Positions 36,170-58,766 of a stretch of DNA of 64,000 nt are shown piece by piece. Source of the DNA: Streptomyces kanamyceticus (lineage in GTDB: Bacteria; Actinomycetota; Actinomycetes; Streptomycetales; Streptomycetaceae); the NCBI RefSeq assembly GCF_008704495.1, contig NZ_CP023699.1:9486001-9550000 (forward strand). Direction: 5' to 3'. Position numbers and translations under genes: made by a program. Position 1 is the first letter of the stretch. Every line of letters starts with the position of its first letter. The notes beneath the pieces were generated by a model. The model saw only the letters and a program-made list of their open reading frames with translations. It did no database searches and was not told the DNA's origin.

Positions 36170-39100
36170 ATGCCGGGGCCGCACGACAAAGTAACTCCGG
36201 ATCACCCAAGCGAGTTTTTGCCCTTGTTGGCCGCCCAACGGGGAATTTGGTTCGCGCAGGCTCTGGCACCCACCGTCACGCACCACAGCATCTCCGACTG
36301 CCTCGACATCGAAGGACCCGTGGACCCGGCGCTCCTCCAGGAGGCCCACCGGCGGGTGACCACGGAAATGGAGGCGCTGCGCCTGCGCTTCGTGGAGGGC
36401 CCCGAGGGCCCCGTGCAGTACGTCGACGATTCCGCGCGGCCGCCCGCCCACTACTTCGACGTCAGTTCCGACGCCGACCCGCGGGCCGCGGCAGAGGCCT
36501 GGATGCGCGCCGACATGGCCAAGGAGGTGAAACTGTCGGAGCCCCCGCCGTTCACCACGGCGCTGTTCAAGCTGGCGGCCGACCGGTTCACGCTCTTCCG
36601 CCGCGTCCACCACCTGCTCCTCGACGGCGGCTCTCTGGGCATGCTGCACCGCCGCACCGCCCAGGTGTACACGGCGCTCGCCGAAGGCCGGACCGTCGGC
36701 GACAACCCCTTCCGGCCCTTCCGCATGCTGGTGGAGAGCGAGACGGCCTACCTCGCCTCCACGCGCCGCGAGCGGGACCGCAAGTACTGGCTCGAGCGGC
36801 TCGCCGACCGGCCCGAACCGGTGCGCCTGACCACCCGGCGCACGGCGGGCGGCGCGGACGTGCTGGTGCGCAAGACCGCCGTGGAACCGGCGCGCCTCGC
36901 ACGGCTGCGCGCGGCAGCCGAGCGATTCGCCGTCAGCTGGGTCGAGTTGACGACCGGCATCACCGCCGCCTACACCGCGCGGATGACCAACGCGCCCGAG
37001 GTCACGATCGGCATGCCGGTCGCGGCACGGCTGACCAAGGTCGAGCGGGACACCCCCGGCATGCTGACCAACCCCGTGCCGCTGCGCATCGCCACCGACG
37101 CGGGGACCTCGCTCGCGGACTTCCTCAAGGACACCCGGGCCGAGGCGCGCGCCGCGTTCCAGCGCAGCCGGTTCCCCTCGGAGGAACTCAGCAGGGAACT
37201 GGGACTGCTCGGCACGGACCGGCGCCTGTGGGGCCCCGCGTTGAACGTCATGGGCTTCTCCTACGACCTCGACTTCGCCGGGGCGACGGCGCGCGTGCGG
37301 ACGCTCTCCCACGGTCACGTCGCCGACCTGATGTTCACCTTCTTCCAGACGTCCGCCGACGGCTCCGTGGACCTCATCGCCGCCGCCAACACCGACCTCC
37401 ATCAGCCGGGCGAACTCGACGCGCACCTCGACCGGTTCCTGCACTTCGCGGACGGCGTCGCCGCCGCGGATCCGGGGACACCGATCGGCGCCCTGCCCCT
37501 CCTGCGCGCCGAGGAACGCGAGCAACTGCTCGTCTGGGGCGCCGGGCCCGTCAAGGACATCCCCGAGGTCGGGATGCACACCCTGGTCGAGCAGTGGGCG
37601 CAACGGACCCCGGACGCGGCGGCGGTCGAACTGCACGGCGGCGCCACGCACAGCTTCCGCGAGCTCAACGAGCGGTCCTCCAGGCTCGCGCGGTACCTGG
37701 TCTCCCGCGGCGTCGGCCCCGGCAGCGTGGTGGGCCTGTCCCTGCCCAGGTCCCCGGACCTGGTGGCGGCCGTCATCGGCGTACTGAAGACCGGCGCCGC
37801 CTTCCTGCCCCTCGACTCGGCCTATCCGGTGGACCGGCTCGCCTTCATGGTGGCCGACGCGGCGCCCGCGCTGCTGTTGCTGCACTCCTCGACGGCCCAC
37901 CTCGCGGAGGTCCTCGACACCGAGAGCCTCCTGCTGGACGACCCGGGCCTGCGGCGGACGCTCGCCGGACTGCCCGGGCACGACCTCACCGACGACGAGC
38001 GCACCGGTCCTTTCGACGCGGGGCTCCCGGCGTATCTGATCTACACCTCGGGATCCACCGGGCGCCCCAAGGGAGTCGTGGTGCCGCACCGCGGCGTCGT
38101 CAACATCACCGGAGCCATGCTGGACCGGCTCGGTTCCGGGCCCGGCGGTCGTACGCTGCAGTTCGCCTCCGCGAGCTTCGACGCGTCCGTGGGGGAGATG
38201 ACCCAGTCGGTGCTGGTCGGCGGGACGCTGGTGATCGCCCCGAGTGACCGTCTCGCGCCGGGCCCCGACCTCGCCAGGGTCCTGGACGAGGCGGGCATCA
38301 ACGACCTGGTCCTCGCCCCCTCGGTGCTCGAAGTGATGTCACCGGACGACCTGCCCCCCGGCGTCACCATCACCATCGTGGGCGAGGCGTCGTCACCGGA
38401 CGTCGTCAGGCGCTGGTCGCCGGTCTGCCGCCTGATCAACGGCTACGGACCCACCGAGGCCACCATCTCCACCGCGATGAGCCTGCCGCTCTCACCGGCC
38501 GACGCCGAGGCGCCGCCGATCGGCAAGCCCCTGCGCAACGTCCGCGTCCGCGCCCTCGACGAGCACCTCGAACTGGTTCCCGTCGGGGCGGTGGGGGAGC
38601 TGTATGTGGCCGGGGCTGGTGTGACTCGGGGCTACCGCGGCCGGGACGAACTGACCGCGGAGCGCTTCGTCCGCGACCCCTACGGACCCGAGGGTTCCCG
38701 GATGTACCGCACGGGCGACCTGGTCCGCTGGACCACCGAGGGCGACCTGGTCTTCGTCGGCCGCAACGACGACCAGGTCTCGCTGCGGGGCTACCGCATC
38801 GAGCTGGGCGAGGTCGAGGCGGCGATCCGGGAGGTGCCGGGTGTCGCGCGGGCCGCGGCGACGGTGATCGAGGACGCGACCGGCGACCGACGCCTGATCG
38901 GCTACGCCGTGCCCGAGCCCGGCAGGCGCCTCGACCCGGCCGCCGTACGCTCCGAGGTCGGCGACCGGCTGCCCGGCTATCTGACCCCGAGCCAGCTGGT
39001 GTGCCTGGACGAACTGCCGCTGACCGCCAGCGGCAAACTGGACCGCAACGCGCTGCCCGAGCCCACGGCGGCCGCCGCGGACCGCAACCAGGTGCCGCGC

Positions 39101-40126
39101 ACCGCTGTCGAGGAGATCCTGGCCGGACTCTTCGCCCGCATCCTCAAGGTTCCCCAGGTCAACATCGACGACAACTTCTTCGACCTGGGCGGACATTCGC
39201 TCTCCGCCACCCGCCTCCTGGGCCGGATCCGGTCCACGCTGGGCAGGGAACTGTCGGTCGGTGAACTGTTCGCGAGCCCCACGGTGGCCGGTCTCGCACG
39301 GCAGCTCGGGGACGGCGCCGTACGCAACCGCGACGACGTCCTCGTTCCCCTGCGCGGGACGGGCAAGAAGCCGCCCCTGTTCTGTGTCCACCCCGCCGAC
39401 GGGCAGAGCTGGGTGTACGTGCGGCTCGCGGGCCACCTTCCGGCCGACATACCCCTGTACGGACTCCAGGCGCACAGCCTGACCGCGCAGGACGGTCTGC
39501 CGGGCACCCTGGACGAGCTGGCGGCCCAGTACCTGGACGCCGTGCGCACCGTTCAACCCGCCGGCCCCTACCGCCTGTTGGGGCTGTCCTTCGGCGCGGC
39601 CGCGGCCCATGCGATGGCCGTGCGGCTGCGGGAGCAGGGGGAGGAGGTGGAGTTGCTGGCCATGCTGGACGGCTACCCGGCGCCGACGGACCACGATCCG
39701 GCGGGCCAGGGCATGTCGGAGCCGGACGCGCTCCGAGCGCTCCTCGCCCGCTTCGACTGCCCCGCGCCGGACACCGCCGGTGAGCCCCTGACGATCGCGC
39801 GGGCCACCGGGGCCCTGCGTGCGGTCTCCGAAGAACCGGCCGACCTGGCGGAGCTCGACGAGAGCAGGGTCGCGGCGCTCGTCCGGACGTACCGGCACAC
39901 CAGCGCCCTGCTGGGGGCCCACCGCCCCGAACCCTTCGACGGGGACGCGGTGTTCTTCACGGCCACGCGGGGCGGGGCCGCGCCGACTCCGCACGCCGAG
40001 TCCTGGGATCCTTTCGTACGCGGCCGCCTGACGCGGCACGACATCGACTGCGCCCACGACGAGTTGACCCACGCCTCGGCGCTGGCCGTGGTGGCACAGG
40101 TCATCACCGCGGGGCCGGACGCCTGA
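36170..40126 (+). CDS. Single-module NRPS 1 (C-A-T-TE)
   Basis: Nonribosomal peptide synthetase of 1318 residues. The condensation domain (about 12-430) has the active motif HHLLLDG (His147, His148, Asp152). The adenylation domain (about 455-950) has [33 protein letters not shown] and the closing TASGKLDRN lysine. The carrier domain has FFDLGGHSL (Ser1010). The thioesterase (about 1065-1310) has GLSFGA (Ser1140). By-eye specificity residues are D-A-G-V-T-V-G-I-S-K, which I cannot match to an amino acid. ATG at 36170 follows GAGGGA; GTG at 36122 is also in frame. A C-domain at the start implies an acyl or aminoacyl donor supplied in trans. Confidence 0.95.
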
Positions 40127-40134
40127 CCGTACGC

Positions 40135-40182
40135 GCGAAGCGGCCCGGGCCACCGCCGAGAGGCGGTGGCCCGGGCCGCTTC
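40135..40182. terminator. Strong bidirectional terminator
   Basis: Perfect 22-bp stem (arms 40135-40156 and 40161-40182) with a GAGA tetraloop, and outer CCGTAC/GTACGG arms at 40126-40131 and 40183-40188 that extend it. It separates the convergent NRPS 1 and aminotransferase genes. Confidence 0.9.
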
Positions 40183-40204
40183 GGTACGGCTGGGGCGGGG
40201 CCGG

Positions 40205-41506
40205 TCAGTACCGGATCTCCGCTAGCGCCTTGTCCAGCGTGGTCACGATCTCCTCGACGTCGGAGGGGGCGACGACCAACGGCGGGATGATCATGATGGC
40301 GGGGGCCATGGCGAGCGAGGAGACGAGCACGCCCCGCTCCTCCAGGGCGAGCCGCAGATGATCGGCCGTCGCGCCGCCCGCCAGCGCCCCGTCCCCGGCG
40401 GACGCCATCTCGACGGCCTGCATCAGACCGGCGCCGCGCACTGCCGCCACGTGCGGATGCCGCGCCGCCACCTCGTCCAGGCCGCTGCGCAGCAGCGCGC
40501 CCATGGCATCGACGTTCTCCAGTACGTCGCCGTCGGCGAGCGTGTCGATGACGGCCATCGACGCGGCGAGCCCGAGGGGGTGCCCGTCGTTGGTCGAGCC
40601 GATCAGGAACTTCTGCTCGAAGTCGAGGTCGAAGAGGCGGGCGGAGACCTCGTCGGACAGCACCACGGCCGACAACGGCGCGTACCCGGCGCTCAGCCCC
40701 TTGCCCAGGGTGAGGATGTCGGGGCGGATGCCGACCTGTTCGGTGCGGGTGAACGCGCCGGTGCGGCCCATGCCGGTGCTGACCTCGTCGACGATCAGAT
40801 GGATGCCGTGGCCGCGGCAGAACCGTTCGAGCGAGTGCAGATAGTCGTCGGAAAGGACGTGCCCGCCCTCGCCCACGACGAGTTCGACGACCACCGCCGC
40901 CACCCGCTCGGGGCCGTACGCGGTGATGGTCTGTTCGAGCCCCGCGCCGGGGGCGGCCGCGCCCTCGAAGGGACCGGAGACGTGATGGACCTCCGGCAGC
41001 AGCGGCCCCGACTGGTCGTGCACGTACGACATGCCGGTCACGGCCCCCGCACCCGAGCCGAGGCCGTGGTAGCCGTGCCACATGCCGAAGACCGCGAGCC
41101 GATCCCGGTCCCCGCCGCTGTGGTGCAGGAAGCGCGAGAGCAGTACCGCCGTCTCCACCGCCTGCGAGCCGTTGCTGCAGTACCGGATCTTGTTCATGTG
41201 TACGGGAAGGTGGGGGAGGAGCGCCTCTGCGGCCTCCACGGCGATCGCCCCCGGCCTTCCGTAGCCGACCAGGTTGGCGAACGGCAGGGTGCGCAGCTGC
41301 CGTTCGATGGCCTCCGTGACCTTCGGGTGGTCATATCCGAGGGTGACGTTCCACAGACCGGAGCGGGCGTCGAGGAACCAACGCCCCGCGGCATCGCGCA
41401 CCCGTACGCCGCGCCCCTCGACCAGCATGTTCTCGTGGGACAAGGTGGTGAGGTAGGCGCCCATGCTCGGGCTGTTCCACAGCGGATAGGTGTCTCGATC
41501 GATCAC
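40205..41506 (-). CDS. Class III PLP aminotransferase
   Basis: Fold-type I, class III aminotransferase of 433 residues, of the omega-aminotransferase/DAPA-aminotransferase type. It has FLDARSGLWNVTLGYDHPKV, SNGSQAVETA (cofactor phosphate loop), WHGYHG, the PLP-pyridine Asp240 (IVDEVSTGMGRTG) and Schiff-base Lys269 (TLGKGLSAGYAPLS). It probably makes or consumes an amine or beta/omega-amino acid for the cluster. GTG at 41506 has AAGGAG 7 bases upstream. Co-directional with the O-methyltransferase gene 52 bases upstream, so likely one transcript. Confidence 0.92.
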   Translation of the reverse strand: MIDRDTYPLWNSPSMGAYLTTLSHENMLVEGRGVRVRDAAGRWFLDARSGLWNVTLGYDHPKVTEAIERQLRTLPFANLVGYGRPGAIAVEAAEALLPHLPVHMNKIRYCSNGSQAVETAVLLSRFLHHSGGDRDRLAVFGMWHGYHGLGSGAGAVTGMSYVHDQSGPLLPEVHHVSGPFEGAAAPGAGLEQTITAYGPERVAAVVVELVVGEGGHVLSDDYLHSLERFCRGHGIHLIVDEVSTGMGRTGAFTRTEQVGIRPDILTLGKGLSAGYAPLSAVVLSDEVSARLFDLDFEQKFLIGSTNDGHPLGLAASMAVIDTLADGDVLENVDAMGALLRSGLDEVAARHPHVAAVRGAGLMQAVEMASAGDGALAGGATADHLRLALEERGVLVSSLAMAPAIMIIPPLVVAPSDVEEIVTTLDKALAEIRY

Positions 41507-41558
41507 GGCCTGGCTCCTTGTCTGCGGTCCGCCGACGGTGGTTCCCCGGTCACCACGC

Positions 41559-42581
41559 TCAGGGGGTGGCGAGCGGACGTGCTTCGATGACGCACATCCC
41601 GGGCGGCCCCTGCACCACCCGCTCCAGTCGCCAGCCACCGCGTTCCAGGAGTCGCCGGTACTCCGGCAGCGTCCGTTCCTTCGCACGGTGGTAGAGGGCG
41701 AGCATGGCGACGTCGGCCCAGGCCTGGATGGCCGACGGAACGGCGTCGTCCGGCAGGACGTCCTCGAAGATCCGCAGCACGGCCGTGTCGTCGCCGCCGC
41801 GCCGCACGGCGGCGAGGATCGCTGCCACGCTGTCGTCGTCCCAGTCGTGCAGGACGCGGGAGAGCACATAGACGTCCGCGCGCGGCGGCGGGACGAACAG
41901 ATCGCCGGTCCGCACCGTGCAGCGGTCGTCGACGCCCTGCTCCGACAGATAGGTACGGGCGCGCCCGAGCACCTCCGGCTGGTCGACGAGAATGCCCCGC
42001 GCGTCCGGTACTTCGTCCAGGATGTCGGCGAGCAGTACCCCGATGCCGCCCGCGATGTCGGCCACGGTGCCCTCGGCGGGCCAGTCCAGGAGCGGCACGC
42101 ACGGCAGCGTCAGCAACCGCGCCTGCTCCGCCATCGCCTGGCCGAAGACGAGCTGTTGGTCGGGGTGCTTCGCCAGGTGCTCCCAGAAGTCGACGCCCAG
42201 GGCGTGCCGGGTGGCGGGCCCGCCGTCCTTGAGGGTCTCGGTGAGCGCGTTGCCGACGTCCGGGATGCCGAATGTGGCGAACGTCGCCCACAGTGACATC
42301 GGGTGACGGCGGCACAGCACCTTGCCCCGTTCGGTGAGTTCGGCGCTGACGCGGCCCGGGTCGACGTCGACGATCCCGCTGCCCGCGAGGAGCACGAGCA
42401 TCCGCCGCAGGGCGTCCTCGTCCGTGCCCGTCTCCTCGGCGAGAGCGGCGATGTCGCGTCTGCCGTCCGCCATCCGGTCGGGGATGGACAGCCGGGTCAC
42501 GGCGCAGAGGCTGTGAAAGACGAGCCCTTGCTGATAGGCGTCCAACAACGCCGCGACGTCGCGTAATGGTTCAGCAGCCAA
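41559..42581 (-). CDS. SAM-dependent O-methyltransferase (Methyltransf_2 type)
   Basis: O-methyltransferase of 340 residues with an N-terminal winged-helix dimerisation domain (about 10-95), as in antibiotic and plant O-methyltransferases. The SAM domain has DIAGGIGVLLADIL and the catalytic-His segment SRVLHDWDDDS, followed by RIFEDVLPDDAVPS. Likely methylates a hydroxyl of the cluster product. TTG at 42581 is chosen because GGAGGA lies 5 bases upstream; the longer in-frame reading covers an intergenic region. Codon 6 is then TTA, suggesting bldA control. Confidence 0.88.
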   Translation of the reverse strand: MAAEPLRDVAALLDAYQQGLVFHSLCAVTRLSIPDRMADGRRDIAALAEETGTDEDALRRMLVLLAGSGIVDVDPGRVSAELTERGKVLCRRHPMSLWATFATFGIPDVGNALTETLKDGGPATRHALGVDFWEHLAKHPDQQLVFGQAMAEQARLLTLPCVPLLDWPAEGTVADIAGGIGVLLADILDEVPDARGILVDQPEVLGRARTYLSEQGVDDRCTVRTGDLFVPPPRADVYVLSRVLHDWDDDSVAAILAAVRRGGDDTAVLRIFEDVLPDDAVPSAIQAWADVAMLALYHRAKERTLPEYRRLLERGGWRLERVVQGPPGMCVIEARPLATP

Positions 42582-43186: not shown

Positions 43187-44146
43187 ATGGGACGCCCAGC
43201 GGACGGAGCGGCGGGATGCGATGCCCGGACGTCGATGGATGCAGTAGCCATCCGTGAAGTCCGAAACGCAATTCGGGGCGAGATTCGCGGCCGATTATTC
43301 ACGTTTAAAGTGCTGGTCTGCGCCTTGATCACGGCTGCGGGATGCTGGCTGGCACTCCAGCCGCAGCTGTCCCTGCGACTGTGCGGAGTCCTGCTGATCG
43401 GGCTCATGTTCGCGCACGCCGCGGAACTCCAGCACGAGACCCTGCACGGTCTCGCCTACCGCAGCCGGCGGGCCAACCGCGTGGTGGGCGTGCTGCTCGG
43501 TCTGCCGATGCTGATCTCGTACACCGCCTACCGCGTGGCCCACATGCGCCACCACCGTGACCTCGGCACCCCGGGGAACCGCGAGTTCTTCGACTACGGG
43601 GACCAGTACGGCAAGGGGGAGGGCGGGAGCCGGATCGGCACCGCGCTGACCTGGTTCGCCCGCTTCACCATGGCGTACCACTACTGGCAGTTCGGAGTCG
43701 GCGTCGGGAAGGCGCTGCGGGGCAGCCGCTTCGACGGCGAGAGCGCCGTCAACACCCGCCGCATCCGCGCCGAGCACCTGCTCGCCGTGTCCGCCCTCGT
43801 CGTCGGGGCCGTGCTCTCGGTGGTGTTCGCCAGCCCCGCGGCCCTCTGGCTCTGGCTCCTTCCGATGGTCGTGGTGGCGGCGCCCATGCACGCGCTGATC
43901 GAGCTGCCGGAACACTTCCGCTGCGAAACGCTCGACCGCTCGCCGTTCGCCAACACCCGGACGATCAAGTCCAATTGGCTGCTCACCTGGTACACCAACG
44001 GCAACAACTTCCACGTCGAGCACCATCTGATGCCCAACCTTCCCATCGAGCGGCTGCCGGACCTCCATGTCGAGGTGCGCGAAAGCCTGCGCCACTACCA
44101 CCCCGGCTACTTCGCCTACTTCAGGAGCTTCCTGGGCGGCAAGTAG
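43187..44146 (+). CDS. Membrane fatty acid desaturase-like di-iron enzyme
   Basis: Integral-membrane di-iron oxygenase of 319 residues with four or more hydrophobic segments. The three histidine boxes are HETLH (83-87), HMRHH (119-123) and HVEHH (about 275). It would desaturate or hydroxylate a lipid or carrier-bound acyl chain at the membrane. ATG at 43187 has AAGGGGG 4 bases upstream. Codon 37 (43295-43297) is TTA, so translation likely needs bldA tRNA. First gene of an operon running to 50273. Confidence 0.88.
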   Translation: MGRPADGAAGCDARTSMDAVAIREVRNAIRGEIRGRLFTFKVLVCALITAAGCWLALQPQLSLRLCGVLLIGLMFAHAAELQHETLHGLAYRSRRANRVVGVLLGLPMLISYTAYRVAHMRHHRDLGTPGNREFFDYGDQYGKGEGGSRIGTALTWFARFTMAYHYWQFGVGVGKALRGSRFDGESAVNTRRIRAEHLLAVSALVVGAVLSVVFASPAALWLWLLPMVVVAAPMHALIELPEHFRCETLDRSPFANTRTIKSNWLLTWYTNGNNFHVEHHLMPNLPIERLPDLHVEVRESLRHYHPGYFAYFRSFLGGK

Positions 44147-44151
44147 CCCTC

Positions 44152-44196: not shown

Positions 44197-44207
44197 GGGA
44201 AGGGACC

Positions 44208-44882
44208 ATGGTCGACGACATCACCTTCCGCAGGGCACGCACACCTGCCGAGGACGCGGATGTGCTGCGGCTGCGGGAAGCGGTGTACGTGCAGGACCAG
44301 GAGCGGCTCACCGACACCGCGCAGACCGCCGACACCTTCGACAAGTTCGACGCCCAGGCCTACTACCTCCTCGCGTACGCCGGGACCGAGGCGGTCGGCA
44401 CGATAAAGATCGTCCCCGACTCACCGGCCGGAATTCCCTGCGAGGACGTCGCCGACATCGGTGAGCTGCGTGCCGCCGGGCACCGGCTCGTGGAGTTCGG
44501 CCACCTGATGACGCTGCCGGGCGTGCGCAATCAGAAGATCGGCATGCGGCTGATGCGCGAGGCGCTGGTGCACAGCGCCCAGGTGCACCAAGTGACGTGC
44601 ATCCTCGGCGACTTCTTCATCGACGACCGGGACGGCAAGCTGCGCGACTTCTACACCGACATCGGCTTCGTACCGGTCCACGGCCCCTACCTGGACCCCC
44701 GCTTCACCGGCGCGCCGCTGAGCATGGTGGCCGCCCTCGACGTACCGGAGTCGGTGCGCCTCTGCAAGGAACTGGGGGCCGACGCCAACGGGTTGCTCAG
44801 GTACTTCTTCCAGGACTTCGAAGCCTACGCGAGGGGATCCTCCGAGTATGCGGACGTACCGGCAGGTACTGGCCGAGGCTAA
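44208..44882 (+). CDS. GNAT-fold acyltransferase, FeeM/N-acyl amino acid synthase-like
   Basis: Protein of 224 residues with the GNAT layout shared by LuxI and FeeM-type enzymes: FRRARTPAEDADVLRLREAV, YLLAYAGTEAVGTIKIVP, then VEFGHLMTLPGVRNQKIGMR as the cofactor-binding strand and helix. Such enzymes join acyl groups from acyl-ACP or acyl-CoA to an amine, which fits the nearby carrier protein. ATG at 44208 follows GAGGGA. Its last 35 bases overlap the aminotransferase gene downstream. A simple acetyltransferase is the alternative. Confidence 0.78.
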   Translation: MVDDITFRRARTPAEDADVLRLREAVYVQDQERLTDTAQTADTFDKFDAQAYYLLAYAGTEAVGTIKIVPDSPAGIPCEDVADIGELRAAGHRLVEFGHLMTLPGVRNQKIGMRLMREALVHSAQVHQVTCILGDFFIDDRDGKLRDFYTDIGFVPVHGPYLDPRFTGAPLSMVAALDVPESVRLCKELGADANGLLRYFFQDFEAYARGSSEYADVPAGTGRG

Positions 44883-49287: not shown

Positions 49288-50273
49288 TCGTCTACGACGG
49301 CCACTGCCACGTGGCATCCACCGACTTCGTCCCGCTGGCCTTCGTGGAAGGCGTGGCGGTCAACGTCCACAGCAGGCTCTCCGCACGAGGCCCCGCACCG
49401 GACCCCGGCCGGATCGCGGACGGCTACCAGGCGCAGCACCAGGACCATCTGGCCGACGGCCTGGTCGCCGAGATGGACCGGGCGGGGGTCGACCGCTCGG
49501 TGCTCCTGGTGCCCGACTTCAGCCACCGGATGGCCTGCCCGCTGACCCCCGAGGAGATGGCCGAGCGGCACCACCGGATCCGGCTGCGGCATCCCGGACG
49601 GTTCTGGGTCTACATCGGGATCGATCCCCGCCACGGCCCAGGCAACCTCCGGTTCTTCGAGAAGACCCTGGACGACTACGGCTTCGACGGCATCAAGCTC
49701 TACCCGCCGTGCGGCTACTCGCCCTCGGACCGGAGCCTGTATCCCTACTACGAGATCTGCGCGGCCCGGTCGCTGCCGGTCTTCGTGCACACGGGCCCCA
49801 GCGTGCCGAGCCTCGACACGGAACTGGCCCATCCGCTCCACATCGACCAGGCGGCCCGCGACTTCCCCGGTGTCGACTTCGTCCTGGGGCACGCCGGGGT
49901 GACCAACCTGGAGACGGGGGCCTATCTCGCGGCGCACCGGCCCAACGTGTACCTGGACATCGGCGGGTTCGCCAGCTCGGCCACCCTGCGGAGCTGGCCG
50001 CACCACCTCAACCGGCTGTTCCGGATGGGCATCAACCACAAGGTGATCTTCGGTACGGACTGGCCGCTCGGGCGGATGTCCGGAGGGCTGCAGCGCACGA
50101 TGCGCGAGGTGGTCGAGGGGCCGACCGTCTTCGACGGCGTGCCCCGGCGCGATCGCGCGCTGCTGCTCCACGAGAACCTGCTCCGGGTGCTCGCTCCCGC
50201 GAGCCGCCCGGCAGGCGTCCTGCCGAAGGGCCCCGACGGCGTACCGAAGGTCCCCGGCCGGAGCCGGTCGTGA
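49284..50273 (+). CDS. Amidohydrolase-family enzyme, metal ligands intact (AH2)
   Basis: TIM-barrel enzyme of 329 residues, amidohydrolase_2 family (hydrolases and non-oxidative decarboxylases such as ACMSD). All expected metal ligands are present: His7 and His9 (YDGHCHV), His169 (VFVHTGP), His203 (LGHAGVT) and Asp259 (FGTDWP). It is paralogous to AH1, from which it is separated only by the carrier gene, suggesting a heteromeric complex acting on a carrier-bound substrate. Last gene of the operon, 26 bases from the convergent aromatic hydroxylase gene. Confidence 0.9.
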   Translation: MIVYDGHCHVASTDFVPLAFVEGVAVNVHSRLSARGPAPDPGRIADGYQAQHQDHLADGLVAEMDRAGVDRSVLLVPDFSHRMACPLTPEEMAERHHRIRLRHPGRFWVYIGIDPRHGPGNLRFFEKTLDDYGFDGIKLYPPCGYSPSDRSLYPYYEICAARSLPVFVHTGPSVPSLDTELAHPLHIDQAARDFPGVDFVLGHAGVTNLETGAYLAAHRPNVYLDIGGFASSATLRSWPHHLNRLFRMGINHKVIFGTDWPLGRMSGGLQRTMREVVEGPTVFDGVPRRDRALLLHENLLRVLAPASRPAGVLPKGPDGVPKVPGRSRS

Positions 50274-50299: not shown

Positions 50300-51175
50300 C
50301 TAGGCCGCGACGAGCTCGCTGTCGTCGTCGATACTGGTCAGGAATTCGCTGAGGAAGTCCTCGAAATGGTTGAAGGACTCGGCCCTGAAAAGGACCGGTT
50401 GGTATTTCTCCACCAGGTAGCCCTGGCGCCCCATGGCCGCCGCGTCGAACGGGAAGATGTCCGCGCCGAGGAAGTATTCCATTTCTCCGCACGAAGACAG
50501 CAGGCTCGCTCCGCAGACCTTGGTCCTGCCGTCCTCCCTCACCAGTCCGTATTCGATGGTGAACCAGAAGACCCGGGACACGAGGCTGACCGCCTCGTCG
50601 GACTCAAGACGGCGGACCGTCTTCCCGAGGAGTTCGTACAGCGTCGCCCATCGATTACTTGAAAGGTGTGTGCCGTGCCCCACCACCTCATGGATCATGT
50701 CCGGTTCCGGCGAAAAGCGCGGGAACGAGGGATGGCGTATGTACTGGGTCGCCTGGAACCTTCGATCGGCCAGCGAGCCGTAGAAATCGCGCTGCGCCAC
50801 CAGTCCCGCGGCCGGGCCGAAGGTGAATCCGGTGAGCGGGTGTACGCGCGCTGAGACGTCGCTGAGCTGCGGAAGCCGGTCGTGCCGCAGGTCGAGCAGC
50901 TCGCTCGCCTCGACGAATTCACGACAGGCGTGCACACGGTGCTTGGCGGACAATTCCGTGCTCACCGTGTGCCACGTCTCGTGCTCGGCCTCCGTATAAG
51001 GAATGTCGGGTGCCGGTTCGCCCACCCTGTGTTGTAAAGCGAGATCGGCGATGCGGGCCCGGTGCTCCTGATACGGCCGGTCCTGGTATCCGGGGTGGTC
51101 CTTCGCGAAGATCACGGACACACGCCCGTGTTCATTATTGATGACCGGAGAGTAAAGGGTGGCTTCCTTGAACAT
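50300..51175 (-). CDS. Pterin-dependent aromatic amino acid hydroxylase
   Basis: Non-haem iron, tetrahydropterin-dependent hydroxylase of 291 residues (phenylalanine/tryptophan hydroxylase family). Iron ligands are His162 and His167 (MIHEVVGHGTH) and Glu208 (FTIEYGL). Also visible are LTGFTFGPAAGLVAQRDFYG and QYIRHPSFPRFSPEPD. In a gene cluster such enzymes can make meta-tyrosine, para-tyrosine or hydroxytryptophan; sequence does not tell which. ATG at 51175 has AGGCGG 5 bases upstream. Codon 47 is TTA (51035-51037). Divergent from the P450-FHA gene, with 145 bases between. Confidence 0.92.
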   Translation of the reverse strand: MFKEATLYSPVINNEHGRVSVIFAKDHPGYQDRPYQEHRARIADLALQHRVGEPAPDIPYTEAEHETWHTVSTELSAKHRVHACREFVEASELLDLRHDRLPQLSDVSARVHPLTGFTFGPAAGLVAQRDFYGSLADRRFQATQYIRHPSFPRFSPEPDMIHEVVGHGTHLSSNRWATLYELLGKTVRRLESDEAVSLVSRVFWFTIEYGLVREDGRTKVCGASLLSSCGEMEYFLGADIFPFDAAAMGRQGYLVEKYQPVLFRAESFNHFEDFLSEFLTSIDDDSELVAA

Positions 51176-51320
51176 CAGAACCGCCTGGTGGATGACGATG
51201 GTTGAAGCGCTCAACGTAGGCTAACGGGTCGCTGAGTGAGTGTCACCCCTGGAGGGTTATAGGTAGCCGATACTCATGGCGAATAGCCGGAGGCTACGTA
51301 TGGATTCCAGAAAGGAAACC

Positions 51321-53438
51321 ATGAAAATTCGGACTCCTCGATGGACGGCCGGCCGAGTTGATGCGGACCTGGCCGATCCCTACTTGTACACCGATGAGGC
51401 CCATCGGGAAATGTGGCGGCAGGCGCGCGGCGAGCATCCGGTGGCGTGGACGGAGTCGGAGCTGGCCGGTGGCTTCTGGTCGGTCGTGACCCACGCCGAG
51501 GGCTCGGAGGTGATCAGACGCCCCACGAGCTTCGTCTCCGACCAGGGCATGCGGCTCCAGGCCAACCCCGCGGGCGTGCGGGCCGCGGCGGGACGCATGC
51601 TCGTCGTCTCCGACGGCGCCGAGCACCGGCGGCTGCGCGGCGTGCACCAGGCATGGTTCAACGCGCGCTCCGTCGCCGCTCTCGTGCCCACCCTCGGCGC
51701 CCGCGTCGAAGCGCGCCTGGACGCCCTGCTGGCCCGCGGCACCGCCTTCGACGCGATCGCCGAACTCACCTCGGAGGTGCCGCGGTGGGCGCTCTTCGAC
51801 CTCCTCGGCGTTCCCGACGAGGACCAGGACGAGCTGGCCCGCACGATGGAGGCCGCCTTCGACGACTCCGACCCGGGCCCCGCGGGTGAGGCCGCCCGCA
51901 CCGCCGCGCACACGCGGATCTTCGGCCACTTCGGTGACCTGCTCGACCTGCGCAGGGAGGAGCCCGGCGACGACATCGTCTCCGCGCTCGCCGAAGCCGC
52001 CCCGGACGGCGTCCCGTTGACCGACGACGAGATCCTGCTCAACTGCGACGGCCTGATGAACGGCGGCCTGGAGACCACGTCGCACGCGCTGGCCGGGGCC
52101 CTGCTGGTCTTCGCGCGCCAGCCCGACGTGTGGCGCAGGCTCAGGGAAGATCCGGGGCTGATCGACACGGCGGTGGAGGAGATCCTGCGGTGGACCTCAC
52201 CGGCCCTGCACGCCCTGCGCACCGCCGCCGAGGACACCGTGCTGGGCGACGTCAGGATCGCGGCGGGCGACCGCGTCGCGATCTGGTACCCCTCCTGCAA
52301 CCGTGACGAGAAGGTCTTCGCCGACCCCGACACCTTCCGGATCGACCGCCGCCCCAATCCGCACATCGCCTTCGGCGGCGGCCCCCACTACTGCGTCGGC
52401 GCCACCCTGACCCGCCTCGAGGTGAAGTGCGTGCTGGCGGCCGCGGTCGAGCGGGTCGCGGAGATCGAGGTCGAGGGCGAAGCGGTACGGCGCCCTTCCA
52501 ACTTCCTCCAGGGACTGTCCCACCTCCGGATCGGCCTGACGCCGGACCGAAGGACCGGCCCGCGCTCAGGATGCGGCCCGCGCTCGGACCCGGAGCCGCG
52601 CTCGGACTCGGAGGTAGGACCGGGCCCGGAGATAGGACCGGGCCCGGTCAACGGAGCGTCATCGAGCGGCACTTCGTCCGACCTGCGCATCGCCCTGCCC
52701 GGCGCGGACAGCGGCACCGGCACCGGCACCGTCGAGGTGCGCAGCAACCAGGAGGTCACCTTCGGCCGGGGCCTGATTGGTGCCCCGGCCGACATCTCCG
52801 TCGACGACCCCACCGGCGAGCCCATCGCGGGACGGATCAGGGCCGCCGAGGACGGCCTGTGGTTCATCACCAACCTCAGCCGGGCCCGCACCTACGTGGT
52901 GGAGAACGAGGAGGGCGGCGGCGAATACGTCTGCGTGCCGCCGGGCCGGCTCGACATGCCCGTCCCGTTCGCGCACGCCAGGATCAGCCTGCCGTCGTCC
53001 TCCGGTTCGACGTACATGTCCGTGCGCGCGCCGACCCCGGCCAACGCGTACGCGGCCACCTCGTACGCGGCCGACGCGGACCCCGCCGCGCAGTCCGACC
53101 CGGCGTTCGCCCTCGATCCCCGGTCCAAGTACTTCTTGGTCCTCGTCGCGCTGTGCGAGCCCCAGCTGCGCACTCCCGCCACGATGGCCATCCCCAGCAC
53201 CGCCGAGATCGTCCGCAGGCTGAGCCCCCTCGCCTCCTGTCGCAGGATCAGCCCGGCGGCGGTCAACTTCCACATCGAGTACATCGCCCGGAACAAGCTG
53301 GGCGTACGCAACCAGCAGCCGCCGTCGGGGCGTTCGGGCGGCAACTGGCTGCGCCAGGCGGTCGTCTCCACCGCGCTGCGGTTCCGGCTGGTGTGGACCG
53401 AACACCTGGCACTGCTTCCCGTCGCTGAGGCGCGGTGA
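51321..53438 (+). CDS. Cytochrome P450 fused to FHA domain and winged helix
   Basis: Single ORF of 705 residues. Residues 1-405 are a bacterial class I P450: helix-C HRRLR, I-helix MNGGLETTSH, ExxR in EEILRW and heme ligand Cys358 in FGGGPHYCVG. Residues about 407-453 are a Gly/Pro/Ser/Asp linker with imperfect repeats. Residues about 455-560 form an FHA-like domain (VTFGRGLIGAPADISVDD; ITNLSRARTYVVENEEGGGE). Residues about 600-701 are a winged-helix region (KYFLVLVALCEPQLRTPATM; AAVNFHIEYIARNKLGVR) as in streptomycete FHA-HTH proteins. ATG at 51321 follows AAAGGA. It may tether oxidation to phosphoproteins or DNA; function untested. Confidence 0.92.
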   Translation: MKIRTPRWTAGRVDADLADPYLYTDEAHREMWRQARGEHPVAWTESELAGGFWSVVTHAEGSEVIRRPTSFVSDQGMRLQANPAGVRAAAGRMLVVSDGAEHRRLRGVHQAWFNARSVAALVPTLGARVEARLDALLARGTAFDAIAELTSEVPRWALFDLLGVPDEDQDELARTMEAAFDDSDPGPAGEAARTAAHTRIFGHFGDLLDLRREEPGDDIVSALAEAAPDGVPLTDDEILLNCDGLMNGGLETTSHALAGALLVFARQPDVWRRLREDPGLIDTAVEEILRWTSPALHALRTAAEDTVLGDVRIAAGDRVAIWYPSCNRDEKVFADPDTFRIDRRPNPHIAFGGGPHYCVGATLTRLEVKCVLAAAVERVAEIEVEGEAVRRPSNFLQGLSHLRIGLTPDRRTGPRSGCGPRSDPEPRSDSEVGPGPEIGPGPVNGASSSGTSSDLRIALPGADSGTGTGTVEVRSNQEVTFGRGLIGAPADISVDDPTGEPIAGRIRAAEDGLWFITNLSRARTYVVENEEGGGEYVCVPPGRLDMPVPFAHARISLPSSSGSTYMSVRAPTPANAYAATSYAADADPAAQSDPAFALDPRSKYFLVLVALCEPQLRTPATMAIPSTAEIVRRLSPLASCRRISPAAVNFHIEYIARNKLGVRNQQPPSGRSGGNWLRQAVVSTALRFRLVWTEHLALLPVAEAR

Positions 53439-53441
53439 TCG

Positions 53442-56400
53442 TCAGGAGGTAGCGCGCAGTCGCCGGGAGACCAGCTCGGCGACCGCCCGCGCGGCCTCGC
53501 CCGACAGCAACTGGTGGTGGGTGCAGTCGAGCCGCACGTCCTCGATGGGGCCCTCCACGTACGGTCCCCAGGCCTCGGCGGCGGACGGCAGCCCGTCGCC
53601 CCGGTCGAGGGCCGCGGTCACGAACAGCACCGGGCCGCGGAACGGCTTGGGGTCGAAGCCCCTGGCGAGCTCGCGGTTGTTCTCGAACACCCTGACCATG
53701 GCGGCCAGTTGGGGTTCGGTCAGTCCGAGGGCCGCGCCCCGCTCCCCGGAGTCCTGCGCCGCGCCGTCCACTCCCAGGGCCTCGGAGACCGCGGCGAGCG
53801 CCTCCTCCGTTCCGGCCGCCTGATCCGCACCGCCCTCCGGCGCCAGCAGCTCCACGTCACCGGGGTAGCCGTCCAGGATCAGCAGCAGCGGCACTTCTTC
53901 CCCCTGCTCCTGGAGGAGGACCGCCATCGCGTGGGCGACGAGGCCGCCGAACGACCAGCCCAGGAGGTGATAGGGGCCGACCGGCTGGACCTCGCGCAGC
54001 CGCTCGACGTACTCCGCCGCCATCTCCCCGATGCTCGCGGGGAGTTCACCCGCCGGGGAGATGCCGCGCGCCTGTACGCCATGGACCGGCTGTTCGGGCG
54101 CGAGGTGGGCGAGCAACGCGGAGTAGCACCAGGCCAGTCCGCCGCCGGGATGCGCACAGAACAGCGCGGGCCCCTGCCCCGACGCGCGCAGCGGCAGCAC
54201 GGTACGGAAGGCGTCGTGCTCCTGGGATTCCTGGTCCCCGCCCGGTTCCGTCAGCCGCAGCGCGAGCTCCGCCACGGTGGGCGCCTCGAACAGCGCCCTG
54301 ATCCCCAGCTGGCGACCGGTGGCCGAGCGGATCCTGCCGACCAGGCGCGCCGCGAGCAGGGAGTGGCCGCCGAGCTGGAAGAAGTTCTCGTCGGCCCCCA
54401 CGGCGTCCACCCCGAGCTCCGCCGCGAAGAGAGCGGACACCAGCTCCTCCGTGGCTCCGCGCGGCGCGCGGGCGGCTGACGACGCGGACGAGGGGGTGAA
54501 CTCCGGGCGCGGCAGCGCCCCGCGGTCGACTTTGCCGTTCGTGGTGAGCGGCACCTCGTCGATCACGATCAGCGCCGCGGGCACCATGTGGCCCGGCAGG
54601 GTGCGCTCCACGAACCGGCGCAGCTCCGTCGGGTCGAGGCGGGCGTCCTCGGTGGGCACGGCGTAGCCGACCAGGCGTACGTCCCCGGAGGCCGCGGCGT
54701 GCGTGGTGACGACCGCGCGGGCCACGCCGGGATGCCCGGTCAACGCGGCTTCGACGTCGCCGAGTTCGATGCGGAACCCGCGCACCTTGACTTGGTCGTC
54801 GGTACGGCCGAGGAACTCGATGTCGCCGTCCGCCCGCCACCGGACCACGTCCCCGGTGCGGTACATGCGGGATCCCGCGGGGCCCCACGGATCGGCCACG
54901 AACCGCTGTGCGCTCAGGCCGGGGCGACGCAGATAGCCGCGTGCCACACCGGTGCCGCCCACGTACAACTCGCCCTTCACCCCGACCGGGACGGGACGCA
55001 GCCGGTCGTCGAGGACGTAGAGGCGGTTGCCGGGCTGCCGCGCGCCGATCGGCACCTGGCCGGACGCCGGTCGCCGCCCCGGATCGATCCGGTACTCGGT
55101 ACAGGCCACCGTGATCTCGGTGGGGCCGTAGAGGTTGTGGGCCCTGGCCTCCGGGCGCCTGCGCCGTGACGACTCCAGCGCCTCGCCGGTGAGCGGCTCA
55201 CCGGCGAGCATCAGGTCCTCGGTGGGCAGGAACACCGGGGGCAGGGCGTCGAGCAGCGCCAGATGGCTCGGGGTCGCGATGAGCAGGGTGCAGGGGTGTT
55301 CCGCGAGCCACGCCTCCAACCGCGGGTCGTGCTCCAGCGGTGCGACCAGGACGCAGCCGCCCAGGATCAGCGGGGTGAACAGGGCGGTGATGGCGATGTC
55401 GAAGGAGACGGAGCCGTGCTGGAGGGCGACGCCGCGCGCGCCGGGGTACTCCTGGGCCGTCCAGGCGAGGTAGTCGATCATCGCCCGATGGGTGACGACG
55501 ACGCCCTTGGGCCTGCCGGTGGATCCCGAGGTGTAGATGACGTACGCCGGGTGGAGGTCCCGCAGCGGGGCGCGGCGGTCGGCGTCGGTGAGGTCGGCGT
55601 CGGCGCCCGGCACCGCGGGAGCCGCCAGGTCGAGGTGCCAGACGGGCACGTCGGCATCGGGCAGACCGGCGCGTACGGAAGTGGTGGTGAGCAGCAGCGC
55701 CGCACGGGCGTCCGCCAGCATGAAGGAGAGGCGGTCGGCCGGGTAGTCCGCGTCGAGCGGCAGGTAGGCGCCACCGGCCTTGCCCACGGCGAGCAGGGCG
55801 ACGAGCAGCTCGGCGGACCCGTCCACGGCGACGGCCACCACGTCCTCGGGCCCGATGCCGAAGTCCACCAGACGGCGGGCGAGCCGGTTCGCCCGCGCGT
55901 TGAGCTCCGCGTAGTCGAGCACGTCCGCGCCGCACCGGACGGCGGGCAGGGCGGGGGTGCGTGCGGCCTGGTGCGCCACGAGTTCGGCCACGGAGGACGC
56001 CGCGGCGGCGCCGCCGGGACGGACGTCGTCTCCTACGCCGCCCCAGTCGGTCAGCAGCCTGCGGCGTTCGGCGGTGTCCAGCAGGTCGATGCTGTGGACG
56101 GCGACGTCCGGATCGGCCACCACCGTGTTGACGAGCCGGACGAGACGGGAGGCCATGGACTCGATCGTGTCCCGGTCGAACAGCTCGGTGTCGTAGTCGA
56201 TCACGCAGCGGATGCCCTGCGGCGCGCCCGCCACTCCGTACTCCTCCTCCACCTGGAACAGCAGGTCGAACTTGGTGGCACTGGTCACCGTCTCCACCGG
56301 CGCCGCCTCCACCGCGCCCAGGCGCCAGGGCGCGGTGGAGCGGACCTCGAAGGTCAGCATCGTCTGGAAGAGCGGGTGCCTGCCCAGCGAGCGGTCGGGG

Positions 56401-57410
56401 TTGACCGCCTCCACCAGCCGCTCGAACGGCAGGTCCTGGTGCTCGTAGGCCGCCAGATCGGTCGCGCGCACCCGGTCGATCACCTCCCGGAAGGTCGGGT
56501 CCCCGGACAGGTCGGCGCGCAGGACGACGGTGTTCACGAAGAAGCCGACGAGTTCGTCGAACTCCTCCTCCGAGCGGCCCGCGACGGCCGAGCCCAGCGG
56601 AATGTCAGTGCCCGCGCCGAGCCGGGTGAACAGCGTCGCGACCGCGGCCTGCAGCACCATGAAGAGGGTCGCCCGGCTCTCCTTGGCCAGCGCGACCAGG
56701 CGGGCCTGCACGGCGGTGCCGAGCCGGAGCTGGACGCTGCCCGCGCGGTGGGCTGAGACGGGCGGGCGCGGCCGGTCGTAGGGCAGCTCCAACTCGGGCG
56801 GCAGTCCGGCGAGGGCGTCGGTCCAGTACCGCAACTGGCGTGCCTGCACGCTGTCCTGGGCGTCCGGATCGCCGAGGAAGTCGCGCTGCCAGGCCACGTA
56901 GTCCGCGTACTGCGCGGGCAGCGGTTCGTCCCACTCCGGTTCTTCGCCGTCACATCGCGCTTCGTACGCCGTGGCGAGATCGGTGGTCAACGGGCCGATC
57001 GACCAGCCGTCGGCCGCGATGTGATGGTGCAGCACGAGCAGCACGTGCTCGTGCTCGCCGAGCACGAACAGCCAGCAGCGGACGGGGAGTTCGGCGGCGA
57101 GGTCGAAGACATGGCGGGCCGCGTCGTCGATGTCGGCGGCAAGCCGCTCCGGAGCGCTCTCCCGCACCAGGAAGACGGGCCGGGCGAGATCGCCCTCGCG
57201 CACCTGCTGGTAGGGCTCGCCGTCGACCTCCAGATAGCCGGTGCGCAGCACCTCGTGCCGCTCGACGACGTCGGTGAAGGCGCGTATCAGCGCATCGCGG
57301 TCGAGGCTTCCGGTCAGCCGGAGGGCCAGCGGCACGTTGTAGGCCGCGCCGTGCTCCTCGAGCCGGGACAGAAACCACAGTCGGCGCTGGGCGTAGGAAA
57401 GCGGGATCAT
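53442..57410 (-). CDS. Single-module NRPS 2 (C-A-T-TE)
   Basis: Nonribosomal peptide synthetase of 1322 residues. The condensation domain (about 1-430) has [10 protein letters not shown]. The adenylation domain (about 460-945) has [33 protein letters not shown] and TTNGKVDRG. The carrier has [12 protein letters not shown] (Ser about 1016). The thioesterase has LLGWSFGG (Ser about 1150). By-eye specificity residues are D-I-T-I-M-A-L-V-A-K, which I cannot assign. The start is taken at 57410 (GGGGGA 4 bases upstream; [14 protein letters not shown] is the normal C-domain opening); ATG at 57422 is in frame. Its end lies 3 bases from the convergent P450 gene. Downstream of an MFS gene, probably one transcript. 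Confidence 0.95.
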
Positions 57411-57464
57411 TGGTTCCCCCATCCGATGGCGATATGACGCCTGGTCCTCTTGGCGCGTTCTTTC

Positions 57465-58766
57465 CTACGGCTTTTCGGCCACGGCCTCGGTTTCGGCCGT
57501 GGGCCTCGGCTCGGGCTCGTTGAGAGGAATGTCGCGCATGCCCCGCAAAGGCGAGAAGAACAGCCAAAGACCCGCGCAGCAACCGCCGATGACGGCGATC
57601 CACAACGTGGTCTGGACGCCGAAGACCGTGGCGAGTCCGCCGCCGACGAGGCCGCCGACCGGCAGGGTGCCCCAGGTGATCCAGCGCGCGGCGGCGCTGA
57701 CCCGGCCGAGCAGCTCCGGCGGGCAGGCGGCCTGGCGGTAGCTGGTCAGCGAGATGCCCGCGACGGTGGAGGAGAAGGTCCACGAGATCCAGCCGAAGCC
57801 GAAGAGCAGCACCCACCAGCCGGATCCGGCCATCGGGATCAGCAGTCCGGGCAGCGAGAGGACGGTCATCGCGATCCAGCTGATCCGCGCGGAGCCGAAG
57901 CGCCGGGCGAGGTGCCGTGCCGCCACGCCGCCCGCCACACCGCCGACGGCGCCCAGCGCGAGGAGCAGCCCGACCAGGCCGGGTCGCAGGTGGAGCGTGC
58001 GGATCAGGAAGACCGGGCCCAGGGTCTCCACGATGATCACGAAGAAGTTGGCGGTGCCGTTGAAGGCCACCGAGTTCCGCAGGATGCGGTCGCGCAGGAC
58101 GTAGTCGAGCCCCTCACGGATCTGCGACCGCATCGTCGGCCGCGGCCCCGGATCGGCCTTGCGGCGCGGCTCCGGGGTGCGGATCGCCGACAGCGCGCTG
58201 GCCGACAGGGCGAAGGAGACCGCGTCGGCCGCCATCGCCCCCGCGGCGCCGATCAGCGTCACCAGACCCGCACCGGAACTGGGGCCCGCGACCTGCGCGA
58301 CCGACCGGGAAGCGGCGATCTTGCCGTTGCCGTCGAGGAGTTGACTGTGTTCGAGGACCGCGGGCAGATAGGCCTGGTAGGCGACCGCGAAGAAGACCGA
58401 GAGCACGCTGGAGACCAGCGCGACGACATAGAGGTGGACGAGTGTCAGGGAGTCGAGGACGTGGGCCAGGGGCACCGAGCCGATCACCAGGAACAGTCCG
58501 ACGTCGCACCAGATCATCAGCCGTCGCTTGGCGACCCGGTCCACGATGGCTCCGGCCGGCAGTGCGACCAGGAGGTACGCGCTCGTCTCCGCGGCCGCCA
58601 ACAGGCCGACCTGGAACGGGGTGGCATCCAGCAGCACGACCGCGACCAACGGCAGGGCGAGAACGGTGATCTGCGTCCCCATCTCGCTGACCGTCTGCCC
58701 GCTCCATAAGAGCAGGAATTCGCGATTGCGCCAGATCGAGGAATGCTTTCTACTGTCGTCGACCAT
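57465..58766 (-). CDS. MFS exporter (MFS_3 type), cluster-linked
   Basis: Twelve-helix transporter of 433 residues: NREFLLLWSGQTVSEMGTQI at helix 1, GAIVDRVAKRRLMIWCD in loop 2-3, and RQAACPPELLGRVSAAARW typical of the MFS_3 group. It lies 54 bases upstream of NRPS 2 on the same strand, so it is the best candidate exporter for the cluster product. ATG at 58766 has only a weak ribosome site. Divergent from the EamA gene. Confidence 0.9.
   Translation of the reverse strand: MVDDSRKHSSIWRNREFLLLWSGQTVSEMGTQITVLALPLVAVVLLDATPFQVGLLAAAETSAYLLVALPAGAIVDRVAKRRLMIWCDVGLFLVIGSVPLAHVLDSLTLVHLYVVALVSSVLSVFFAVAYQAYLPAVLEHSQLLDGNGKIAASRSVAQVAGPSSGAGLVTLIGAAGAMAADAVSFALSASALSAIRTPEPRRKADPGPRPTMRSQIREGLDYVLRDRILRNSVAFNGTANFFVIIVETLGPVFLIRTLHLRPGLVGLLLALGAVGGVAGGVAARHLARRFGSARISWIAMTVLSLPGLLIPMAGSGWWVLLFGFGWISWTFSSTVAGISLTSYRQAACPPELLGRVSAAARWITWGTLPVGGLVGGGLATVFGVQTTLWIAVIGGCCAGLWLFFSPLRGMRDIPLNEPEPRPTAETEAVAEKP

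What the first reader, a model, noticed from the sequence alone, without database searches (positions are those of the whole stretch)
36170..58766. Unassigned biosynthetic gene cluster built around two one-module C-A-T-TE NRPSs
Seen: two complete but separate NRPS modules at opposite ends of a region, each with its own thioesterase. Between them lie an acyl-AMP ligase, free carrier protein, two amidohydrolases, desaturase, FeeM-like GNAT, two class III aminotransferases, O-methyltransferase, aromatic amino acid hydroxylase and P450. Known: single modules ending in TE release dipeptide-like, oligomeric or amide products. Inference: a carrier-bound, desaturated and aminated acyl unit is joined to one or two amino acids. 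I recognise no described cluster with this gene set.
Basis: partly seen in the sequence, partly recalled or inferred. Interest (0 to 1): 0.85.

Follow-up and report, generated by a model that had tools for sequence, protein, structure and literature searches.

The report
Conserved peptide cluster with unusual starter cassette
This Streptomyces-type gene cluster appears to make a small modified peptide that starts from an unusual building block, made by a seven-gene set that recurs in the same order in related soil bacteria and that I could not match to a described product.

Summary
In detail: the genes named are all at the stated place. Seven of them (desaturase-like diiron enzyme, FeeM-like N-acyltransferase, aminotransferase, acyl-AMP ligase, amidohydrolase 1, carrier protein, amidohydrolase 2) keep one order and strand in 11 single-contig loci including the window; two further copies are split or partial. 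New here: the aminotransferase carries a C-terminal START/aromatase-cyclase fold; the amidohydrolases are a duplicated pair in which copy 1 has no intact HxH metal site (0 of 13) yet is strongly constrained; the biopterin hydroxylase goes with one NRPS1 pocket code (5 of 5 loci) and is absent from 7 of 11 relative genomes; and the two "separate" C-A-T-TE proteins look like successive modules of one line, since NRPS1's thioesterase is absent or lacks its serine in 4 of 6 loci while module 2 keeps one in 6 of 6. Likely product: an acyl unit followed by two amino acids, the first aromatic. The acyl unit's structure and the cassette's chemistry are inferred, not shown. MIBiG could not be searched; paper searches found no matching cluster.

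The parts
33731..34714 (-). E1 beta of a 2-oxoacid dehydrogenase (optional accessory)
   Evidence: Pfam PF02779/PF02780; 46% to nearest own-genome paralogue but 73-94% to copies beside the cassette in four relatives
34707..35972 (-). E1 alpha of a 2-oxoacid dehydrogenase (optional accessory; start uncertain, perhaps 35744)
   Evidence: Pfam PF00676; 69-83% in S. flavofungini, S. lasiicapitis, Actinospica, S. silaceus
36122..40126 (+). NRPS1: C-A-T-TE, proposed first module; pocket code DAGVTVGISK (read by motif anchors)
40205..41464 (-). AT1, class III aminotransferase (start 41464-41560); among the cassette loci read, found beside the cassette only in window and S. silaceus
41559..42548 (-). 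O-methyltransferase (Methyltransf_2; Dimerisation match just under its cut-off)
   Evidence: also in S. silaceus, Actinoplanes and Micromonospora loci
43187..44146 (+). DES: membrane diiron oxidase of the FA_desaturase family, nearest named family GntB
   Evidence: PF00487, NCBIfam GntB 67 bits vs cut-off 380; three His boxes in 12 of 12 homologues by loose patterns (alignment)
44208..44882 (+). FeeM-like N-acyltransferase
44848..46530 (+). AT2: class III aminotransferase (about residues 34-404) fused to a START/SRPBCC domain (about residues 421-560)
   Evidence: fold; every genome hit of the extra domain lay in this cassette
46533..48038 (+). AAL: acyl-AMP ligase proposed to load the carrier protein
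   Evidence: PF00501; PDB relatives FadD13/malonyl-CoA synthetase
48035..49039 (+). AMH1: Amidohydro_2 copy without an intact HxH metal site, proposed non-catalytic partner of AMH2
   Evidence: HxH in 0 of 13; one clade 100/100; dN/dS 0.135
49036..49287 (+). ACP: free carrier protein, 83 aa, GLLDSMAL site
49284..50273 (+). AMH2: Amidohydro_2 copy with HxH, His169, His203, Asp259 kept
   Evidence: invariant columns in A5; tree
50300..51214 (-). AAAH: biopterin-dependent aromatic amino acid hydroxylase, only copy in the genome
   Evidence: absent from 7 of 11 relative genomes searched
51276..53438 (+). P450 in one frame with a C-terminal region of about 290 aa (FHA-like and HTH-like by eye); a separate protein in S. 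mashuensis
   Evidence: no Pfam match for the C-terminal region
53442..57422 (-). NRPS2: C-A-T-TE, proposed second and releasing module; pocket code DITIMALVAK (read by motif anchors)
57465..58766 (-). MFS exporter
   Evidence: 94% in S. silaceus in the same place

Best explanation
This is one biosynthetic gene cluster for an acylated dipeptide-type natural product. A seven-gene cassette makes the acyl unit on the free carrier protein: AAL loads an acid (inferred), the diiron enzyme DES oxidises the chain (inferred), AT2 installs an amine and its START domain shapes or closes a ring (inferred), the FeeM-like enzyme makes an amide (inferred from fold), and the AMH1/AMH2 pair, AMH2 catalytic and AMH1 structural, carries out a metal-dependent step on the carrier-bound unit, either ring closure or removal of a protecting acyl group (inferred). 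NRPS1's C domain joins the unit to an aromatic amino acid supplied by the biopterin hydroxylase; the O-methyltransferase and P450 modify it; NRPS2 adds a second residue and its thioesterase releases the product (all inferred). Shown by sequence: gene content, conserved order, the START fusion, loss of AMH1's metal site under constraint, hydroxylase/pocket-code linkage, decay of the NRPS1 thioesterase in relatives. Not shown: any substrate, intermediate or product.
Against: In the window and in S. silaceus the NRPS1 thioesterase looks intact (GxSxG), so early release cannot be excluded. The nearest own-genome relative of NRPS1's C domain (37%, 258 bits) is about as close as the free C domain of the other branch (42%, 276 bits; the two calls score differently), so orthology of that C domain is not proved. 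E1 beta has no match at E<=1e-80 in 6 of 11 relatives, and in M. rubida it lies about 85 kb off or on another contig, so it is not needed. Nothing fixes AAL's substrate. Named PF04909-type relatives in the PDB are hydratases and decarboxylases, so AMH2 may do neither proposed reaction.
Confidence: 0.6

Rival explanations
1. Two products: NRPS1 and NRPS2 each release on their own (acyl-amino acid from NRPS1, a dipeptide or amide from NRPS2).
For: Both thioesterases carry GxSxG in the window and S. silaceus; the two NRPS genes lie at opposite ends and on opposite strands.
Against: NRPS1 thioesterase absent in S. mashuensis and G239 and without serine in L016 and L025; a thioesterase stays with module 2 in all six. 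NRPS2's C domain looks like an ordinary peptide-bond C domain that needs an upstream donor (by eye).
Confidence: 0.15
2. The cassette is a protect-modify-deprotect system: the GNAT-type enzyme N-acylates a carrier-bound amino acid, the iron enzyme oxidises it, and AMH2 removes the acyl group.
For: Distant AAL+AMH loci also carry a GNAT and an iron oxygenase of another family: GNAT in 32 of 40 (29 if three matches of 24-27 bits are dropped), DES, HDO or PhyH in 33 of 40, both in 31 of 40 (28 without the weak three) loci with AMH >=340 bits, AAL >=500 bits and >=12 kb; in Lysobacter L020 GNAT and HDO are fused.
Against: Named PF04909-type relatives with solved structures are hydratases and decarboxylases; FeeM-type enzymes as known add long acyl chains rather than protecting groups (recalled). 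The profiles were seeded from these same loci and near-identical loci are counted apart.
Confidence: 0.3
3. Lipopeptide: AAL loads a fatty acid, DES desaturates it, and FeeM/NRPS1 attach it to amino acids; AMH and AT2 tailor the head group.
For: Ligase relatives are FadD-type; DES is a PF00487 fatty acid desaturase family member at 142.7 bits; FeeM fold.
Against: Among NCBIfam models DES scores best to an amino acid hydroxylase (67 bits) and only weakly to named fatty acid desaturases (26.6 and 21.6 bits); an aminotransferase-START fusion and two amidohydrolases have no obvious role in a plain lipopeptide.
Confidence: 0.25
4. The amidohydrolases close a heterocycle in the way of the benzoxazole enzyme NatAM or the imidazoline enzyme MxcM, giving an oxazoline- or cyclic-amidine-type starter.
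For: AMP ligase, carrier protein and amidohydrolase lie side by side also in the caboxamycin cluster (PMC5481532, passages); NatAM closes benzoxazoles and MxcM is reported to take part in imidazoline formation (PMC7204872, passages); START domain on AT2 resembles aromatase/cyclases.
Against: NatAM is a two-domain protein of about 494 residues, AMH2 a 329-residue protein with only the PF04909 domain: a different branch, so the parallel is by analogy only.
Confidence: 0.25

Closest known systems
FeeM long-chain N-acyl amino acid synthase (PDB 2g0b)
   Different: 17-20% identity; embedded in a cassette with aminotransferase-START fusion and amidohydrolase pair; activity untested
Caboxamycin/nataxazole benzoxazole pathways (CbxB-E, NatL2/NatAM)
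   Same: AMP ligase, carrier protein and amidohydrolase adjacent (PMC5481532)
   Different: NatAM, the homologue of CbxE, is a larger two-domain amidohydrolase (about 494 residues, PMC7204872); the cbx genes in the passage read hold no NRPS, FeeM, desaturase or aminotransferase (a class III aminotransferase, a carrier protein and an AMP ligase are listed as flanking orfs outside that cluster)
GntB, guanitoxin arginine gamma-hydroxylase
   Same: Best NCBIfam match of DES; histidine boxes of the FA_desaturase family in DES
   Different: 67 bits against an equivalog cut-off of 380
PigE aminotransferase of prodigiosin MAP synthesis
   Same: Class III aminotransferase among the best NCBIfam matches of AT2
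   Different: 268.5 bits against cut-off 850; AT2 has a C-terminal START fold, whereas the PigE model aligns from its position 403, so its extra part lies N-terminally
Polyketide aromatase/cyclases TcmN, ZhuI, BexL
   Same: Fold of the AT2 C-terminal domain
   Different: Sequence identity 9-15%; fused to an aminotransferase; no ketosynthase among the genes assigned at 33.7-58.8 kb

Membership tests
Nonribosomal peptide synthetase cluster | C, A, T and TE domains with catalytic motifs | tested here: met
FeeM N-acyl amino acid synthase | FeeM Pfam domain above curated cut-off | tested here: met
   PF21926 58.3 bits vs 27
FeeM N-acyl amino acid synthase | FeeM fold | tested here: met
FeeM N-acyl amino acid synthase | transfer of acyl from carrier protein to an amino acid | not testable with these tools
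   needs an assay
GntB arginine hydroxylase | NCBIfam equivalog cut-off | tested here: not met
   67.2 vs 380 bits
Membrane diiron FA_desaturase family | PF00487 and three histidine boxes | tested here: met
   (12 of 12, loose patterns)
Benzoxazole-forming amidohydrolases (NatAM/CbxE) | two-domain protein of about 494 residues | tested here: not met
   AMH2 329 aa, PF04909 only; NatAM size from PMC7204872
Benzoxazole-forming amidohydrolases (NatAM/CbxE) | sequence match to a solved NatAM chain | tested here: inconclusive
   profile A1 did not list it at E<=1; absence not proof
Amidohydrolase superfamily, catalytic member (AMH2) | HxH, two further His, Asp | tested here: met
   invariant H7, H9, H169, H203, D259 in 12 rows; HxH in 13 of 13 cassette copies
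Amidohydrolase superfamily, catalytic member (AMH1) | HxH metal ligands | tested here: not met
   intact in 0 of 13; first His alone kept in 4 of 13
START/SRPBCC fold (AT2 C-terminal domain) | helix-grip fold | tested here: met
PigE (prodigiosin) | NCBIfam equivalog cut-off | tested here: not met
   268.5 vs 850 bits
Phenylalanine 4-monooxygenase | NCBIfam NF008877 cut-off | tested here: met
   259.9 vs 247 bits; regiochemistry (para or meta) not tested
Any cluster in MIBiG | same gene set and order | not testable with these tools
   MIBiG/antiSMASH not available

The most novel reading that the evidence does not exclude
The cassette is a new carrier-protein pathway to a nitrogen heterocycle: an aminotransferase-START fusion aminates and cyclises a carrier-bound acyl chain, and a two-subunit amidohydrolase with one dead subunit completes ring closure, giving an undescribed peptide starter unit shared by different NRPS formats; ligase, carrier protein, amidohydrolase, N-acyltransferase and iron oxygenase would be a general module that bacteria of at least two phyla reuse with interchangeable oxygenases.
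Probability: 0.3. Interest if true: 0.75.

Novelty: new variant of a known kind. Interest (0 to 1): 0.55.

Why it matters
The seven-gene cassette sits in at least three settings (window type, flavofungini type, Actinospica) and contains three enzyme features that can be tested one by one: an aminotransferase fused to a cyclase-like fold, a conserved amidohydrolase pair with one subunit stripped of its metal site, and a FeeM-fold acyltransferase next to a dedicated carrier protein. If the chemistry is ring formation it would add an enzyme route to heterocyclic peptide starters; if it is protection and deprotection it would still explain a recurring set (GNAT, iron oxygenase, ligase, amidohydrolase) seen in 31 of 40 loci, from Actinomycetota and Pseudomonadota. 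It also gives a sequence handle for finding more such clusters.

Tried and rejected
Protein homology search against the large database was not possible (switched off). PDB by sequence: the AT2 C-terminal profile gave only chance matches, DES none at E<=1. The benzoxazole lead was first taken as possible homology; sizes and Pfam family speak against it, so it is kept as analogy. L029 is from Pyxidicoccus fallax DSM 14698, the strain of the closoxazole paper, but its amidohydrolase is of the window's small family; I did not match it to the published pfx genes. The mangotoxin paper (PMC13185094, passages only) has no occurrence of amidohydrolase, acyl carrier or GNAT. A phenylalanine-3-hydroxylase literature search (listing only) gave no residue test that I could apply, so para versus meta is open. 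Pocket codes were read by motif anchors recalled from the GrsA numbering, not by a predictor; Lys517 is assumed. The 'P450ext' query was one base out of frame; redid it in frame (55% over 251 aa to L009, 87% over 254 aa to L008), and only that is used. In the co-occurrence count, of the 81 loci L006-L086, 40 were kept; 10 of the first 50 were dropped for length or weak scores (L006, L013, L022, L028, L032, L035, L047-L050); the 31 remote loci L056-L086 gave 0 of 31 with these GNAT and 0 of 31 with these DES, HDO or PhyH profiles, which shows only that the subfamilies are specific, since the profiles were built from the first set. dN/dS rests on one pair of species, using NG86. G239 has a P450 39% identical to the window's, on the other strand some kilobases beyond NRPS2, which I do not count as the cassette's P450. 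G021 is taken to be Actinospica durhamensis because its contig C943 has the length and matches of record NZ_JAGSOG010000099.1.
Full report
WHAT IS THERE. The window is bases 9486001-9550000 of a 10.13 Mb single-contig genome that has 69 condensation-domain matches. The carrier protein reaches only 13 bits with the Pfam model but is clear from its GLLDSMAL site, its position and its homologues. Codon-position composition agrees with the gene calls.

A CONSERVED CASSETTE. With the window that is 11 loci on single contigs. Actinospica durhamensis (G021) has it split over two contig ends, with AT2 and the ligase in one open frame, and a Pseudonocardiales MAG has a partial copy. The cassette is rare: the AT2 extra domain is in 3 of 391 genomes of the order and 1 of 396 of the phylum, own genome counted in both.

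TWO NRPS FORMATS. In format I (window, S. silaceus, S. mashuensis, Actinoplanes, Micromonospora, G239) NRPS1 precedes the cassette and NRPS2 follows or faces it; in five of these six (not G239) the biopterin hydroxylase and a P450 next to it are present. In format II (S. sp. McG3, aureocirculatus, flavofungini, lasiicapitis, typhae) a free C domain stands before the cassette and an NRPS after it; in S. flavofungini that NRPS reads A-MT-T-C-A-T and in McG3 the contig ends inside it. I infer that both formats give the skeleton acyl unit, residue 1, residue 2. The E1 pair lies with the cassette in the window, S. silaceus, S. flavofungini, S. lasiicapitis and Actinospica, but E1 beta has no match at E<=1e-80 in 6 of 11 relatives searched, and in M. 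rubida lies about 85 kb from the hydroxylase or on another contig: optional.

ONE LINE, NOT TWO. NRPS1's thioesterase has GxSxG in the window and S. silaceus, is absent in S. mashuensis and G239, and reads GVGLGG and GVGDGA (serine lost) in Micromonospora and Actinoplanes. Module 2 ends in a thioesterase (window, S. silaceus, S. mashuensis) or is followed by a separate thioesterase gene (Actinoplanes, Micromonospora, G239) in 6 of 6 (confirmed by Pfam only for the window, and for Micromonospora, by motif and similarity for the rest). I infer that NRPS1 hands its product to NRPS2. Against this, both thioesterases look intact in the window itself.

RESIDUE 1 IS PROBABLY AROMATIC. The hydroxylase is the only one of its family in the genome. 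It is present in 4 of 11 relative genomes and absent from 7. All five format I loci with it share the pocket code DAGV(T/S)VG(I/V)SK, while G239, which has none, has DMAMVAAVYK. NRPS2 codes vary between loci. So NRPS1 most likely activates the hydroxylase's product or a derivative; n is small and the code reading rests on recalled anchor rules.

A PAIR OF AMIDOHYDROLASES, ONE WITHOUT AN INTACT METAL SITE. AMH1 and AMH2 are sister clades of 13 sequences each (supports 100/100 and 96/85; joined at 98/97), next to Lysobacter and Rhodanobacter copies (the partial Pseudonocardiales rows are long branches). AMH2 keeps its ligands, whereas AMH1 has HxH in 0 of 13 (first His alone in 4) and the FGTD aspartate in 1 of 13. 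AMH1 is nevertheless the most constrained cassette protein between window and S. silaceus (dN/dS 0.135; AMH2 0.168; others 0.247-0.310). I infer a hetero-oligomer with AMH2 as catalyst.

A WIDER PATTERN. In 40 loci that hold a strong AAL and a strong AMH in at least 12 kb, a GNAT of one of three subfamilies is present in 32 (29 without three weak matches), an iron oxygenase (DES, HDO or PhyH) in 33, both in 31 (28 without the weak three). Lysobacter L020 has GNAT and HDO in one protein. Near-identical loci count separately and the profiles were seeded from these loci. Eight of the 40 lack a GNAT match and seven an oxygenase match.

MECHANISM. Shown: gene content, order, conservation, predicted folds, residue losses. 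Inferred: AAL loads ACP; DES oxidises; AT2 aminates; START and AMH act on the carrier-bound unit; C1 condenses. Two versions of the AMH step, ring closure and deacylation, stay open, and the chemistry of named PF04909-type relatives in the PDB (hydration, decarboxylation) is a third.

KNOWN OR NOT. Benzoxazole pathways also set an AMP ligase, a carrier protein and an amidohydrolase together (PMC5481532, passages), but NatAM is a larger two-domain enzyme (PMC7204872, passages; closoxazole paper PMC12118335, abstract and section 2.1). None of the searches listed a paper that I recognised as describing this gene set; most were seen as listings only, and many papers are not held. I rate it a new variant of a known kind (NRPS cluster with a new starter cassette), interest 0.55.

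Noticed in passing
window 51276-53438 (+): P450 and a ~290-residue region that by eye looks like FHA plus HTH lie in one reading frame, as in S. silaceus; in S. mashuensis (L009 12034-13368 and 13307-14074) they are two overlapping genes in different frames.
   Followed up: partly
window 3765-4835 (+): Asparagine-synthase-like gene with full glutaminase domain but only about 53 of 354 positions of the synthase domain: apparently truncated.
   Followed up: no
L092 2159-4846: In Actinospica durhamensis (G021) the aminotransferase-START protein and the acyl-AMP ligase share one open frame, a possible natural fusion of consecutive steps.
   Followed up: partly
L017-L019, L021, L023, L024, L053: Burkholderia, Mitsuaria, Cupriavidus and Variovorax loci share most of an uncharacterised set; in L023 it reads FAAL-carrier protein, AMP ligase, haem-oxygenase-like enzyme, carrier protein, PLP synthase, GNAT, amidohydrolase, MauG-type peroxidase.
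   Followed up: no
L030, L031, L034, L036-L038, L041, L045, L055, L007: Actinobacterial loci with AMP ligase, amidohydrolase, PhyH, KASIII-like enzyme and GNAT; asparagine synthase, TauD, GMC oxidoreductase (read in L030) or ATP-grasp (read in L037) families recur in some: another unassigned family of clusters.
   Followed up: no
own genome C1:2468869-2470510 (-): Nearest own-genome relative of NRPS1's C domain lies at the start of a 7434-codon NRPS frame, directly after a free carrier protein match.
   Followed up: no
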